Origin: Bolinopsis microptera
Taxonomy: Eukaryota; Ctenophora; Tentaculata; Lobata; Bolinopsidae
Direction of reading: 5' to 3'
Assembly (NCBI RefSeq): GCF_026151205.1
Contig: NC_087077.1
Location: 10,779,983 to 10,843,982, forward strand
Length of the DNA stretch: 64,000 nucleotides
In this document: positions 5,554 to 61,531 of the stretch, piece by piece
Numbering within the stretch: the first letter of the stretch is position 1
Layout: each line of letters opens with the position of its first letter
The notes under the pieces: generated by a model
Seen by the model: only the letters and a program-made list of their open reading frames with translations
What the model was told of the DNA's origin: nothing
Databases searched by the model: none
Program-made: the position numbers and the translations under genes

Positions 5554-5915
5554 TATTTTACCAAAACCCATAATCATGGGTAGAGTGGAGCGCTGCCAGT
5601 GTCTCTCTTTCCCAAACAAAAGGCAATGATATCAATTTGAATGACCGTTATCAAATGCAAAATGATACCGAGAATGAAATCGGTCGCTCGCTTTTCCCAT
5701 TCATTTACAATTGAAATAGATTACATGTTATAAATCGAAACTTATTACAATTCGTAAGCCATGAATGAGTGGGAAAAGCGAGCGACCGATTTCATTCTCG
5801 GTATCATTTTGCATTTGATAACGGTCATTCAAATTGATATCATTGCCTTTTGTTTGGGAAAGAGAGACACTGGCAGCGCTCCACTCTACCCATGATTATG
5901 GGTTTTGGTAAAATA
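5554..5915. mobile_element. long-arm hairpin module P, copy 2 (short loop)
   Basis: Same arms and termini as 3993-4506, but the loop is reduced to a few tens of bases, giving 362 bp instead of about 515. Its seven differences from copy 1 in the outer arm are mirrored in the opposite arm. Confidence 0.8.
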
Positions 5916-6584
5916 TAACTACAGGAATTTTCAGTTTAAATCTCGTGATCATGATACTGGTATTTGGATGGTCACTAAATTGTAAAATATACAGATCTGT
6001 GAATAGAATCGGCTAAATATTTGGTAATCTGTTCACAAAATTAAATATCGATCAATTCGAACTAATCTCATTCGATAGTCGATCGGAAAACTGAATCTAT
6101 TCTTTTAAAACGAACGTCGAACATACTATAAAAAATTTGAATTGAATGGAATTTGAATTGAATGGAATTGGAATGCCTGCCATGCCAAACCTTTTGAATC
6201 TGAACATTTAGCTCACTACGTACAACTCAGTATTATCATTGATGTCACCACGCTGGCCTGTAACATTACAAAATCTCTGACAAGTGACAACTGGTGTGTT
6301 CTAGGCCGGTTCACGGTATCAGTTTGTGTCCTTCATGACTTATTTGAAAGCCTTAAATTTTCTGTAAGGACTGTAATTACTTTTGGATTACATAATATTG
6401 CATGCCTAGGATTCTTCGATACGTAATGGATAGTATTAGTGGCTCCAGCCACTAGAAAATAAATCCTACCGCTCACTCTAAAATACGAGTATTTATTAAA
6501 CTAGCTTTTTTTTCACGATCGGATAAATTAATATCTGAATTTGTCTTCCCCGCATAATGCTATTAATTCTATAGTGCGGTAGTA
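5916..6584. other. noncoding, no gene seen
   Basis: AT-rich sequence with a short GAATTGAATGGAATTT tandem near 6140. Nothing else supported. Confidence 0.5.
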
Positions 6585-6706
6585 TACTCGTATTGTCATA
6601 CGTTGTATGACCCGCCGCGCACGAAGTGCGCGGCTCCCCCTGTAGCGTCGAAGACGCTACATAGTGAAACGACCGTGGGGGTCGCAACGTGATACAATAC
6701 TCGTAT
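6585..6706. mobile_element. small fold-back element with two GAA hairpins
   Basis: Imperfect terminal inverted repeats (ATACTCGTATTGTCATACGTTG on the left against CAACGTGATACAATACTCGTAT on the right) enclose a GC-rich core. The core has two perfect 9-bp hairpins with GAA loops, at 6614-6634 (stem GCCGCGCAC) and 6641-6661 (stem TGTAGCGTC). No coding capacity. Element status is inferred from the inverted ends only. Confidence 0.5.
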
Positions 6707-6804
6707 CGGTATAGTAATTGAGTTTGAATGGTAACGCCCTAGTATGAGTATGATTATAGTCAAGCTAAGGAAATTGCAAGTAGAAGTACCGCTTCTCAGC
6801 TATT

Positions 6805-6833
6805 GTGGTTTATTTTTAGTGACAATAAACCAC
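6805..6833. other. hairpin, 10-bp perfect stem
   Basis: GTGGTTTATT (6805-6814) pairs perfectly with AATAAACCAC (6824-6833) around a 9-nt loop, and pairing can extend three more bases outward with one wobble. Role unknown. Confidence 0.5.
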
Positions 6834-6839
6834 GATAGA

Positions 6840-7876
6840 TTGTACAGCGGTTTAGATTATCGAGATTTGACGACTTGCAGTACTTGTTACGATATTATGC
6901 ACGAAGAAAAGCATTAGATTTTGAAAAAGACTAACCAACTAAATTGAATGGTAACAATGGCGATCTGCTTTTTTCTTCCCCAACTTGACCGCTGACGAAT
7001 GAAGTGGTGTGCATATTAACTTGAATATTATTCTGGATGTATTGGCTATTGTTGTAGAGTTTTAGAATGATAAAGAAGGTCCGCGGTTATAATTTGTGCG
7101 GTAATCAGTAATCGTAATTAACCTCTAATAGTTCAGACTTCACAAAGCTGTAACTGTTGATTTAAATTCTGATCACCGGTATTGGAGTGGATGGTATTAG
7201 TATTTATGCTTATACTTTAATATTTTAATTCAGTTTGCAATTATTGACTTCCAGCTGCAGCGTGATAAGTGCACCTTTCAATGTCATCCAACTATGTATT
7301 AACTTATGTGGAACATGGCTAGTGTTGAGATTTGACTTCACACATTTGTGACAAATTCCGATCAGGCCTTAAGGAATTTATAGTTAATTTCAGTATCTAC
7401 ATATTTAAATGTGTGTCAAATTCTGTGAATAAGATTCTACAACATCTCTGTACCACTACCAGTTATAGTTATACTTGTATATAACTATAAGTATAACTGG
7501 TACGTATAGCAGCAAAAATTGAGCACAGAAATTAAAGATTTACGACCAAATTTTATGACACCAGCAGCTGCAGCTATCATCACACATGGGCAACAAAAAT
7601 AGCCATATTTCCGAACGAGCGAGCTTGCTCTAAAAGTGAGACCGCAGACCGTCACGGCTCCAGTCATGCAGTTCCAGGCTGGATTATACTTCTGGGATGG
7701 TCACTAACTACTAGTTAAACTAGGTCAACGTTTTGAAGTTCAGTGCTATAAGTATAGCTATAACTGTCCGATCAAAACAAGCCTTTAACTCATGTAAATT
7801 GTAAACCCGACTCCGTTACTCGTTAGTCAGTGTTTTTTTTTGCAGACAGCTGATTGCTGATTCCAGCCGTGTTCTA
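6840..7876. other. noncoding, no gene seen
   Basis: No supported gene. Near 7461-7500 there is an inverted ACCAGTTATA/TATAACTGGT pair in AT-rich DNA. Confidence 0.45.
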
Positions 7877-55134: not shown

Positions 55135-55313
55135 GTAGGAGAAAATACACCTCCTCCCTTCCTAGAATTCTACTATAAGTAGTCTGCATCATTTATCAAA
55201 CCGGCCTTTGAGTATGAGCGTTATTCGTAGGAGAAAATACACCTCCCTTCCTATAGTTCTACTTTAAGTAGTCTACCTCATTTAACAAACCCTTTGAGTA
55301 TAAGCGTTATTCG
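55135..55313. repeat. two-copy 92-bp tandem repeat upstream of exon 1a
   Basis: GTAGGAGAAAATACACCTCC begins at 55135 and 55227. Both copies continue through CTACTWTAAGTAGTCT and CTTTGAGTATRAGCGTTATTCG. The second copy ends 24 bp before the ATG of the exon at 55338. The position suggests the promoter or 5' UTR of that exon; this is inference only. Confidence 0.8.
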
Positions 55314-55337
55314 TCTTGGTTGTTGATACAGTACTAT

Positions 55338-55447
55338 ATGGCTTTCGTTAAGCTTAAAACGAAGCCTTTGCCGAAGGCTAAGGTCGTTAAAAAGAAGCCT
55401 AGAGTCGTTTATGCGAGGCCGAGGCCTCGATCACCGGGCTATGTACG
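55338..55447 (+). CDS. alternative first coding exon (1a) of SV2/SVOP-like transporter
   Basis: An ATG opens 36 codons plus two bases, ending at a CG|GTAAAT donor. If not spliced, the next in-frame codon is TAA at 55449. The peptide is basic, Lys/Arg/Pro/Val-rich, and clearly paralogous to the exon at 56060-56172: both have M-x-FVK near the start, P-K-x-KVV in the middle, PRV, R-P, and end GYVR at the boundary. Start, phase (2) and donor are identical in the two, so splicing to 56594 would give a 516-residue transporter with a different cytosolic tail. Both may also share a CCGGCCYTTGA motif upstream (55200 and 56001). Alternatively it is a decayed exon duplicate or an independent 37-aa peptide gene. 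The open frame after divergence favours function. Confidence 0.6.
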
Positions 55448-56059
55448 GTAAATGTGGGGTTCATTGGGGAATTTACATTGAAACATCAGACTTAACCCGA
55501 CCTCCGAAATTGCGAAAGATACCAATTATTCTTGTTTGAAAGCATTATCAACTACATTCGACACGACTGACCAGTGGTTAGAAATAGAGATTATGGGGTC
55601 TACCTTGTGTTTCACAAGATATATATAAAATTTAGAATTTGAATCGAGTTTAAATCTGATCACCCACTCTTCTAGAACTTTCCTTAAGTACCACATAAAA
55701 TCCTCCTTCATTTACCATTTTAAACCATGTAATATAATCAGTAATTACACTAATTCAACATGGTTACACAAGGTTAATCCAATGTTGTGACCAAAAAAAC
55801 ACTAGCCTCATCAAACTACGTGGCCTTGGAATGTCCAGTATTTGAATATTTGAGTTTGTTACTGCGTTCATTTTAATTCTACGGAATAACGGTATTTATA
55901 ATTTGCCACGGCCTCTCTTGTCACCCTGCTAAATAAACGACGATCTTCCTAATTTGTCGAAGACCTTAAAGTGGGATCACCCCATAGTTAAAATACTAAT
56001 CCGGCCCTTGATATTTATTTCATTTGATTTGCTTGCTGATCCACAGCTGCTGAGTTGTT

Positions 56060-56172
56060 ATGCCTTTCGTTAAATTTAAAAAGAGGGCTGAGCCTAAGCC
56101 GAAGGTCGTTAGTAAGAGCCCCAGAGTTGAGAAATTAAGGCCGAAGGACACTCAATCGTCAGGCTATGTGCG
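56060..56172 (+). CDS. first coding exon (1b) of the transporter
   Basis: 37 codons plus two bases ending CG|GTAAAT. The encoded tail is rich in Lys, Pro and Arg. An in-frame TGA 9 bp upstream fixes this ATG as the first. Joined to 56594, the split codon becomes CGC (Arg), the same residue as the unspliced CGG. Confidence 0.7.
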
Positions 56173-58974
56173 GTAAATTGGGGTAGACGGGGTTTAGTGA
56201 GACACTAAAGACTGAATTTTGATTCTGATCATTAATAAAATTTAATTGGCAAAAATACATATATTCGTAACGAGATGGTTCGAAGTTTCAGTGTTTAACC
56301 ACTGAACAGTGAACGCTGCTATTACTCTATTAGTTTAATACAATGGTTGTGACTTGTGATCATGTGACCTATATTCTATTTTTGGATAGCCACATATCAC
56401 CACTTTCTATCATCACTCTGATGAATAAACGGAAAACATGCCGACAACAACTACATCCGACATAACAGTGACCAGTCCTGAATTATTTAATAAATTAATA
56501 ATAATATTTCCTTCCGTTTCACAAGATGTTTTCTTGCATTTTTTCACAAAATATTTCCTTGTGTTTCATAATATAAAAACCTCTATTCCTCAGCCCGACT
56601 GAGTACGTGACACAGATGAACAGGAAAAATGCTCTGCAACTAGCAGACCAGGAAGTAGCTCTTCAGGAGGTGCTACATTTTCTTGTACAGGGTCTAGCTT
56701 ATCTTCTGCTTATCCTGATTATCTGCAGCTTTGGGTTCGTCACCGGGTTAGAGGTGAGTTTCAACGTGCTTTTAAACGGATTTAGATATTTCGAACTTTC
56801 ATTTTCTATTAACATTACGTTTGGAGGATCAGCAGATTATCAATTTATTGACCAGGAACGACTATTTTTTGTTGCACCCCTCTAAATTCCTCTTCCACAG
56901 TACCTATCGTATCCTCTCCTGATGAGACAGTTGACCTGTACGGAAGAATGGGGAACCATATACCAAAGTGTTTTACCGTCAGCCAATTTACTGGCAAACA
57001 TGATCGGATCTATCGTTGGTGGCATTGCTATTGATAAGATTGGAAGGAGACCAGTATTTATTGTTTCTGCGCTACTTGCTATTGTCGCAGGTTGGTTTAC
57101 AAAATTTAACTTTTTTTATACATAAGCTTCAACTTAAATTTTGTTATTGTAGCATGTATATTGTATAAGTTCAACTAGCAGCGACTTTTTAGCCAAACAA
57201 ATGTGATCACACAATCCTAATTCATATTGTATAAGTTCCGTAGAATATATGAAAACAAAGTTAAACGAAAAACTTGAATAGTTAAAATTAATTATACATA
57301 TTACATTTTACATGCATATTCTAATTTTCTTGAATGGCGTACTCAATTCTGCTATCTGTATATTTATATATATACTACTTGAATATGTAAATTCAGATTT
57401 TAAGTCTCCGTCCGGCTCATTAGACAGGGTAACAGAGTCTGTTAGCAGAGTCCGTTAGCAGAGTCTGTTAGCAGAGTCTGTTAGCAGAGTCTGTTAATAG
57501 AGTCTGTTAGCAGAGTCTGTTAGCAGAGTCTGTTAATAGAGTCTGTTTGCAGAGTCTGATAGCAGAGTCTGTTTGCAGAGTCTGTTAGCAGAGTCTGTTA
57601 GCAGAGTCTGTTAGCAGAGTCTGTTAATAGAGTCTGTTAGCAGAGTCTGTTAGCAGAGTCTGTTAGCAGAGTCTGTTAGCAGAGTCTGTTAGTAGAGTCT
57701 GTTTGCAGAGTCTGATAGCAGAGTCTGTTTGCAGAGTCTGTTTGCAGAGTCTGTTAGCAGAGTCCGTTAGCGGAGTCTGCACCTTAAGTCAGTACTCAGT
57801 CATACGTATATTTAATTTTCGGACACTGTTTATTATCATCAATTATTTTCACCTTATTAGTTATTAAACCTCCATTTTTGCAGAGTTGGTGAGCATGATC
57901 TCGATGGAGACGACCCTGTTCATAGTGGCACGCGGTCTCTCCTCCCTGATAATGGGTGTCCTGTACATCACCACCCTGCTCTACACGATAGAGACATGTC
58001 CAGCTAAACACAGACTCCACTCCTACTTCCTACACTTTCTTGCACAAAACGCTGCCACCACCATTGTCCCTCTCATTATAAGTAATTCTCCGGTTGATGG
58101 GACTACTAACATTTGGCCTGCTGTCTCCAACAGTGTGGTCGTTCTGTTGGCTCTGGGAGTCATCGTGGGGATCCTCTACCCAGAGCCCTCCCAGAGCAGC
58201 AAAATCCGAGCCAACACCGGTTCAAAGTTCCAGAACAGGTTCAGTGTCATGCAGCTGGAGAATGATGACGAGATTCATGCGGAGCCTGAATTCGCAATGT
58301 ACACTGACATGTTTTATAAGGGCGGCAAGGTTGTGGGGTGTCTTCTCATACTCCTATTTTTTATCGGAGGTTTAACTTCCACATCATTGTATCTCTCGTT
58401 TCCCATCATCTATAACTCAAACGGGGTGTGCACTGCGAATGAACAATATTCAAAGCCGTGCATGGAGGAGACTGCGAGTTATGCGACTCACGTGACGAGT
58501 ATCGACGAGCTGGTAACAGTATTTGGGTGTTCCATCTTAGGATCAGTGCTAGCGTACATAGCAGTACAGAGATACGGGAGGAAGAACAGTTACCGGGCCC
58601 CCGCAGCTTTTAGAGTGGTCGTTATTGTCAGTATGGTGATGTGTGGCAGTCACCGTCTCATGCTGTCCCAGGTTGGTCTCCTCGTCCTGTTCACCAACAC
58701 CATGGACTTCACGCTAGATCTTTACTGCTTAGAGCTGTTCGCTGCTAGAAGCAGAGCCACTTCCTTTGGGTTACTCAAAGGACTCAAGTTCTTTGGAACT
58801 GCCATTGCGTTCTTAATTAATCCTTTTATTTTAACGTACGTACCTCCAGACCTTTTGTGGTCAATATATACTGTGGTAGGGACTATTTTATTCGGATGCT
58901 CGTTAGGCCTTAGGAAAGACACTTTTATTATGGCAATTAATATTGAAGAATCTACAATAGACGTTGGATTGTGA
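56060..58974 (+). CDS. SV2/SVOP-like major facilitator transporter, 4 exons
   Basis: Exons 56060-56172, 56594-56753, 56901-57090 and 57884-58974 join in frame (phases 2, 0, 1) to 517 residues, a normal size for this family. Residues 1-70 are a basic cytosolic tail and linker. TM1 is about 72-90. Residues 131-141 hold the MFS A motif (GG-x-x-x-D-x-x-GRR), the TM4 Arg is R171, and TM6 ends in YPEP near 253. A charged central loop spans about 255-302. The second-half motif RYGRK is near 384, and ELFAARSRATSFG is near 438-450. The main luminal/extracellular loop, with two cysteines, follows TM7 (about 325-365), as in SV2/SVOP rather than SLC22, whose large loop follows TM1. It is expected to move a small organic solute across the plasma or vesicle membrane; the substrate cannot be predicted. 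SLC22 membership remains possible. Confidence 0.85.
56594..56753 (+). CDS. exon 2 of the transporter (linker and TM1)
   Basis: The acceptor follows a pyrimidine-rich CTCTATTCCTCAG and the donor is GAG|GTGAGT. The frame is open from the first base, through seven codons, to an internal ATG at 56616. That ATG would be the start if the first exons were not used, giving 472 residues. It encodes a hydrophilic linker then TM1. Confidence 0.8.
56901..57090 (+). CDS. exon 3 of the transporter (TM1-TM3, motif A)
   Basis: Acceptor TTCCACAG, donor GCAG|GTTGGT. Encodes C-T-x-E-W in the TM1-TM2 loop and the GRRP motif after TM2. The exon ends in phase 1, completing GAG with the first two bases of the next exon, which keeps TM3 continuous. 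Confidence 0.85.
57431..57780. repeat. 13-bp minisatellite inside intron 3
   Basis: About 27 copies of CAGAGTCTGTTAG with TAATAG and TTTGCAG variants. It fills nearly half of the 793-bp intron between 57091 and 57883. Each unit contains CAG or TAG, so it adds many AG dinucleotides well upstream of the real acceptor. Confidence 0.9.
57884..58974 (+). CDS. exon 4 of the transporter (TM3 to C-terminus)
   Basis: The acceptor TCCATTTTTGCAG is strong. The 1091-bp exon runs to a TGA at 58972 and encodes most of the protein in one piece: TM4-TM6, the central loop, TM7-TM12 and a short cytosolic tail ending in acidic and hydrophobic residues. Confidence 0.9.
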
Positions 58975-61013: not shown

Positions 61014-61531
61014 TATTTTACCAAAACCCATAATCATGGGTAGAGTGGACCGCTGCCAGTGTCTCTCTTTCCCAAACAAAAGGAAATGATATTAATTTGA
61101 TTGACCGTTCTCAAATGCAAAATGATACCGAGAATGAAATCGGTCGCTCGCTTTTCCCATTCATTTACAATTGTAATAGATTAAGAAGAACTACCCAAAG
61201 GCAGCTGTACTCGGCAATGAAGATTCAATAAACTCCAGCTTGTTCAATAAGTAATAACTACCACCCTTGTCCCTTACCCCGAAATACTAGGTATCGACCC
61301 CAACGCAACCCAAAGAGATTTTTACAGCATCTGATTGATGTAATCAATCGAAACTTATTTATACAATTCGTAAGCCGTGAATGAATGGGAAAAGCGAGCG
61401 ACCGATTTCATTCTCGGTATCATTTTGCATTTGAGAACGGTCAATCAAATTAATATCATTTCCTTTTGTTTGGGAAAGAGAGACACTGGCAGCGGTCCAC
61501 TCTACCCATGATTATGGGTTTTGGTAAAATA
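61014..61531. mobile_element. long-arm hairpin module P, copy 3
   Basis: Same termini as copy 1, with arms of about 165 bp and a loop close to that of copy 1. It ends about 50 bp before the truncated reverse transcriptase. Confidence 0.8.

What the first reader, a model, noticed from the sequence alone, without database searches (positions are those of the whole stretch)
55338..56753. Two paralogous, phase-matched first exons encode alternative basic N-tails of one transporter
Seen directly: two short frames 722 bp apart (55338, 56060) have the same start motif, the same KVV..K.PRV core, the same GYVR end and the same CG|GTAAAT donor in phase 2. The next acceptor (56593/56594) continues in frame from either. 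The paralogues have diverged in the middle but keep frame and ends, and length differs by exactly one codon. Inference: mutually exclusive first exons, perhaps from two promoters, giving 516- and 517-residue transporters that differ only in a Lys/Arg/Pro-rich cytosolic tail that could set trafficking or lipid contact. I know of no described SV2/SVOP gene with such a duplicated basic tail exon.
Basis: partly seen in the sequence, partly recalled or inferred. Interest (0 to 1): 0.75.

Follow-up and report, generated by a model that had tools for sequence, protein, structure and literature searches.

The report
Twin alternative first exons, ctenophore transporter
A comb-jelly membrane-transporter gene carries two related copies of its short first coding exon, so it can probably make one transporter with either of two positively charged front ends; this is a real but moderately interesting case of a known kind of alternative exon.

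Summary
Two frames at 55338-55447 and 56060-56172 encode homologous 37/38-residue Lys/Arg/Pro-rich tails, end in the same phase-2 donor (CG|GTAAAT) and join in frame to the acceptor before 56594, giving 516 or 517 residues. The best new evidence is a sister gene 27 kb downstream. It keeps one tail exon with the same donor, and its second exon has no Met, so a tail exon (or another upstream exon) must supply the start. Three tail exons were found in this genome. In the sister gene slot 1a survives only as the last few codons plus intron, behind a gag-like fragment; so both slots seem to predate the gene duplication, and 1a is dispensable in one copy. Assembly statistics fit the ctenophore Bolinopsis microptera. 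Arrays of spliced-leader-like RNA genes, some beside 5S rRNA, mean the choice may be made by trans-splicing instead of two promoters. Joining 1a to 1b would hit a stop at once. There is no RNA evidence. The SV2 label was tested and not met; SVOP could not be tested; it is an MFS protein.

The parts
55338..55447 (+). Alternative first coding exon 1a: 37-residue tail (13 K/R, 6 P, net +13), donor CG|GTAAAT
56060..56172 (+). Alternative first coding exon 1b: 38-residue tail (12 K/R, 5 P, net +9), donor CG|GTAAAT
   Evidence: homologue in the sister gene at L003:5274-5386
56594..56753 (+). Shared exon 2; contains TM1 and an internal ATG at 56616 that the sister gene lacks
56901..57090 (+). Shared exon 3
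57884..58974 (+). Shared exon 4 with stop codon
55325..55331 (+). Candidate (inferred) acceptor GATACAG; its AG is 55330-55331, 6 bases before the 1a ATG
   Evidence: read by eye; no RNA evidence
56038..56046 (+). Candidate (inferred) acceptor GATCCACAG; its AG is 56045-56046, 13 bases before the 1b ATG; splicing from 1a to here gives Arg-Cys-stop
   Evidence: read by eye; similar site in the sister gene; no RNA evidence
55135..55314 (+). Two tandem copies of an 89-base unit just upstream of exon 1a; possible promoter-proximal element, function unknown

Best explanation
Exons 1a and 1b are tandem-duplicated, alternative first coding exons of one MFS transporter gene in a ctenophore, most likely Bolinopsis microptera. 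Each supplies the start codon and a basic, proline-rich cytosolic N-tail and splices in phase 2 to the shared exon at 56594. An mRNA that joined 1a to the site before 1b would read Arg-Cys-stop, so only one tail can be used productively per mRNA. Shown from sequence: frames, donors, homology, the sister-gene parallel. Inferred: that both are expressed; that the 5' end is formed by spliced-leader addition at an AG just before each ATG, or else by two transcription starts; that the tail tunes sorting or membrane contact.
For: Both models give intact 516- and 517-residue proteins. The sister gene (tail at C6:10862273) repeats the anatomy: tail exon, CG|GTAAAT donor, phase-2 acceptor, 512 residues; its exon 2 has no Met, so an upstream coding exon must supply the start. 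A composite tail query matched 3 places in the genome at E up to 10, these three exons. Neutral drift of 1a from a 1b-like start (0.2 or 0.27 substitutions per site, indels at half or all of the per-lineage intron rate; 20,000 runs per setting) leaves it open with ATG, frame and donor GT in 1.75-4.8% of runs, and 6-9% of those keep net charge 9 or more. From the sister tail with AT-biased mutation (0.15-0.27, 0.014 indels per site) 3.1-7.4% stay open and 13-28% of those keep charge 9 or more. Leader-like RNA genes are abundant in this genome.
Against: No transcript data. Residues change fast: dN/dS about 0.59 for 1a-1b, 0.52 for 1a-sister, 0.38 for 1b-sister. The tail exon is no more conserved between sister genes (79.6%) than the 130 bases upstream (82%). 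Without indels, 9-24% of the neutral runs keep the exon open. Slot 1a is lost in the sister gene. The AG sites were read by eye, an AG there is common by chance, and the 1a/1b upstream flanks are not significantly alike (227 of 2000 shuffles). The leader-like RNAs fold no better than shuffles (3 of 3 tested, z -0.64 to 0.25) and match no Rfam spliced-leader family.
Confidence: 0.65

Rival explanations
1. Only 1b is a working exon; 1a is a decaying spare copy that happens still to be open.
For: The sister gene keeps only the 1b-like exon; 1a-1b dN/dS is about 0.59; an open frame survives drift in 1.75-24% of runs depending on settings.
Against: Both slots seem to predate the gene duplication, because the sister keeps the end of 1a and the following intron; 1a kept ATG, frame, donor and net charge +13 while 1a and 1b diverged by dS 0.535.
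Confidence: 0.22
2. The exons are separate genes for short basic peptides that end at the TAA overlapping the donor, unrelated to the transporter.
For: CGGTAA gives a stop in frame right after each tail and in the sister copy.
Against: The stop is a by-product of a GTAA donor in this phase; the tail lies directly upstream of exon 2 in both genes, and the sister's exon 2 has no start codon of its own.
Confidence: 0.05
3. In gene A the main protein starts at the ATG at 56616 in exon 2, with a spliced leader joined straight to 56594, and the tails are minor forms.
For: Gene A has an ATG at 56616; leader-like RNA genes are present.
Against: The sister gene lacks that ATG (TTGACC); the tails stay open and basic.
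Confidence: 0.08

Closest known systems
GLUT9/SLC2A9 splice variants (MFS)
   Same: An MFS transporter with two splice variants that differ in tissue distribution and subcellular location (passage in PMC7462842). That they differ in the N-terminal tail is recalled; the reference list there shows a title ending 'alternative splicing alters trafficking'.
   Different: I recall no report that the GLUT9 first exons are tandem paralogues; not checked here. In the present gene they are.
GLUT11/SLC2A11 alternative-promoter isoforms (MFS)
   Same: Alternative promoter usage and three isoforms, from a reference title seen in PMC7462842.
   Different: Homology between those first exons was not examined.
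Alternative trans-splicing of C. elegans sma-9
   Same: One locus yields different proteins through an unusual trans-splicing event (abstract of PMC2904332).
   Different: sma-9 gives shorter transcripts; here two paralogous coding first exons would compete, which is not demonstrated.

Membership tests
Major facilitator superfamily (PF00083/PF07690) | Match above the curated cut-off | tested here: met
   PF00083 60.5 bits against 22.3; PF07690 58.2 against 33.4
Major facilitator superfamily (PF00083/PF07690) | About 12 transmembrane segments | tested here: inconclusive
   A 19-residue Kyte-Doolittle scan at threshold 1.4 lists 10 segments
SV2 synaptic vesicle protein | Match to TIGR01299 at its cut-off | tested here: not met
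   21.9 bits against 637.3
SVOP | Orthology to animal SVOP genes | not testable with these tools
   No animal gene collection was searchable; best solved-structure matches are weak: SLC22A6 E 0.001, SV2B E 0.0036 (10 distinct sequences at E up to 1)
Tandem alternative first exons | Paralogous exons with the same phase and donor, each able to join the shared exon | tested here: met
Tandem alternative first exons | Both used in transcripts, one at a time | not testable with these tools
   No RNA data held
Spliced-leader trans-spliced gene | Genome has spliced-leader RNA genes | tested here: met
   Of 12 copies read, 12 have a leader end AATTTGAG, 11 of 12 GTAAG after it, 10 of 12 ATCTTTTGG (Sm-like, label recalled); 40 scored matches of 339 candidates. 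Against: fold z-scores near zero, no Rfam leader family, no RNA
Spliced-leader trans-spliced gene | Leader found on this gene's mRNA | not testable with these tools
   No RNA data held

The most novel reading that the evidence does not exclude
Isoform choice is made by spliced-leader trans-splicing: the pre-mRNA carries two leader-accepting, protein-coding first exons that are tandem paralogues, and the trans-splicing machinery picks the cytosolic tail of the transporter. As a further, less likely extension not counted in the probability, the sister gene's 1a slot was taken over by a gag-derived open frame that runs in frame into the same donor.
Probability: 0.25. Interest if true: 0.6.

Novelty: new member of a known kind. 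Interest (0 to 1): 0.4.

Why it matters
If both tails are used, this gene is a compact natural experiment on what a basic N-tail does for an MFS transporter: two tails on one body, and a sister gene that kept one. If the choice is made by spliced-leader addition, it would be a directly testable case of trans-splicing diversifying a protein and not only capping mRNAs.

Tried and rejected
Tails as a wider exon family: only three matches at E up to 10 (a short query, so misses are possible); exon 1a with its flanks as DNA matched itself and the sister tail exon, nothing else, at E up to 10. SV2 membership: not met. Co-duplicated promoters: upstream similarity not significant. The gag-like ORF in the sister gene's 1a slot as a new first exon: it is a partial piece of gag (56% to the nearest relatives; no Pfam match) whose frame runs into the same donor; frame agreement alone is a one-in-three chance, so it is left as an aside. 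The 'Ty3-like' label for the relatives is my reading of their open frames, not a family match. Leader-like RNA as a folded, Rfam-known RNA: fold energies of 3 copies no better than shuffles; no Rfam match for six copies; for three array stretches only SmY below its gathering score (23-24.5 bits against 39) besides 5S rRNA. Structure prediction and fold search were not run: the spliced protein is not contiguous in the window DNA. Other species could not be compared: the searchable collections are prokaryotic, viral, plasmid or (0 scans left) metagenomic. Papers, in the held library only: 'ctenophore' + 'alternative first exon' 0; 'SVOP' + 'alternative first exon' 0; 'Bolinopsis' + 'spliced leader' 0; a five-term search on tandem first exons of transporters gave 4 papers, judged unrelated from the listing; in a two-of-three-term search (34 papers, 10 listed) none of the listed ten holds 'alternative first exon'.

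Full report
What was checked. With exons 55338-55447 or 56060-56172, then 56594-56753, 56901-57090 and 57884-58974, both models translate without an internal stop to 516 and 517 residues. 1a and 1b align over 162 columns at 69% identity.

The organism. The assembly is 264,652,675 bases in 232 contigs; C1 is 26,206,493 bases; search places fall on C1 to C13 plus a few small contigs. Published figures for Bolinopsis microptera are 265 Mb, 13 chromosomes, largest 26.2 Mb, but 346 scaffolds (table seen as a passage of PMC11797021). The species is inferred, not proven.

The sister gene. A second copy lies 27 kb downstream: exons L003:5274-5386, 5623-5767, 5941-6130 and 6304-7394, 512 residues. It has a tail exon of the 1b kind with the same donor. 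Its exon 2 begins in the same phase but has no methionine (TTGACC where gene A has ATGAAC). Without an upstream coding exon the first start would fall in exon 3, beyond the first membrane segment. This is the strongest evidence that tail exons are translated as part of the transporter.

History. In the sister gene, sequence matching gene A from 55440 (the last codons of 1a, its donor, the following intron) is present from L003:4529; the rest of 1a was not found in the 24 kb compared, and a gag-like open frame, L003:3815-4537, abuts it. So the 1a/1b duplication seems older than the gene duplication. Tails differ by dS 0.49-0.54 in all three pairs, while the bodies differ by dS 0.096 overall (exon 2 0.242, exon 3 0.043, exon 4 0.088); introns and intron parts are 72-83% identical in gapped global alignments, which flatter identity. 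Gene conversion of the body is a likely reason; this is inference.

Constraint on 1a. dN/dS is about 0.59 for 1a-1b, 0.52 for 1a-sister and 0.38 for 1b-sister, on about 25 synonymous sites each, so residues change fast. What is kept is frame, ends, donor and net charge (+13, +9, +11). In neutral simulations with indels, 1.75-7.4% of runs keep an open exon with ATG and donor; without indels 9-24% (20,000 runs per setting). This favours selection on 1a without proving it. The tail exon is no more conserved between sisters than the 130 bases upstream (79.6% and 82%).

How the choice may be made. Ctenophores add a spliced leader to many mRNAs: the leader was on 56% of Hormiphora Iso-Seq reads, and the motif of an earlier study occurs 491 times in Mnemiopsis (PMC8527503, section read). 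In this genome the end of the Hormiphora leader plus GT gave 8 matches with up to 3 mismatches against 4 for the reversed control; the best one, on C13, was unique when extended (1 match, control 0). The shorter pattern TNAATTTGAGGTAAG gave 7 matches, 5 on one strand of C13 within 88 kb, control 0. Of 12 copies then read, 12 end in AATTTGAG, 11 of 12 continue with GTAAG and 10 of 12 hold ATCTTTTGG, which resembles an Sm site (recalled label). A 230-base query gave 40 scored matches of 339 candidates, 28 on C13 and 12 on C5, many 700-880 bases apart. Two of three array stretches fetched also hold a 5S rRNA gene on the same strand. Against a spliced-leader RNA: 3 of 3 copies fold no better than shuffles, and no Rfam leader family matched. 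Leader addition is therefore probably available here, not shown. An AG lies 6 bases before the 1a ATG, 13 before 1b and 13 before the sister's ATG; these were read by eye and such an AG is common by chance. If 1a were joined to the 1b site the frame would read CGC TGC TGA, a stop; the sister letters would give CGT TGC TGA.

The protein. Pfam gives Sugar_tr and MFS_1 above cut-off. All 13 NCBIfam matches listed are below their cut-offs, SV2 included. The tail precedes the first hydrophobic segment (residues 64-82 of the 1b form) and should be cytosolic in an MFS protein (general knowledge of the fold).

Verdict. A real pair of homologous alternative first coding exons, probable but unproven in use, of a known general kind.

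Noticed in passing
L017, L018, L019, L009-L014 (C5:21.34-21.35 Mb; C13:12.78-12.95 and 15.24 Mb): Arrays of spliced-leader-like RNA genes (leader end, GTAAG donor, Sm-like site), in two of three stretches fetched beside 5S rRNA on the same strand.
   Followed up: partly
L003:3815-4537: A 241-codon gag-derived open frame sits where exon 1a would be in the sister gene and runs in frame into the same donor; nearest relatives in the genome are 56% identical.
   Followed up: partly
window 56594-58974 versus L003:5623-7394: Body exons of the two sister genes have dS 0.04-0.24 but their tails about 0.5, suggesting gene conversion of the body.
   Followed up: partly
window 57433-57779: 13-base minisatellite (CAGAGTCTGTTAG, about 27 copies) in intron 3 of gene A; the sister's intron 3 is 173 bases by the exon ends.
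   Followed up: no
window 61014-61168 and 61377-61531: Inverted repeat, 155-base arms 99% complementary, near what looks by eye like reverse-transcriptase sequence (no family search).
   Followed up: no
L015:1064-1774: 42-base tandem repeat, about 17 copies, whose reading resembles the end of the gag-like frame in L003.
   Followed up: no
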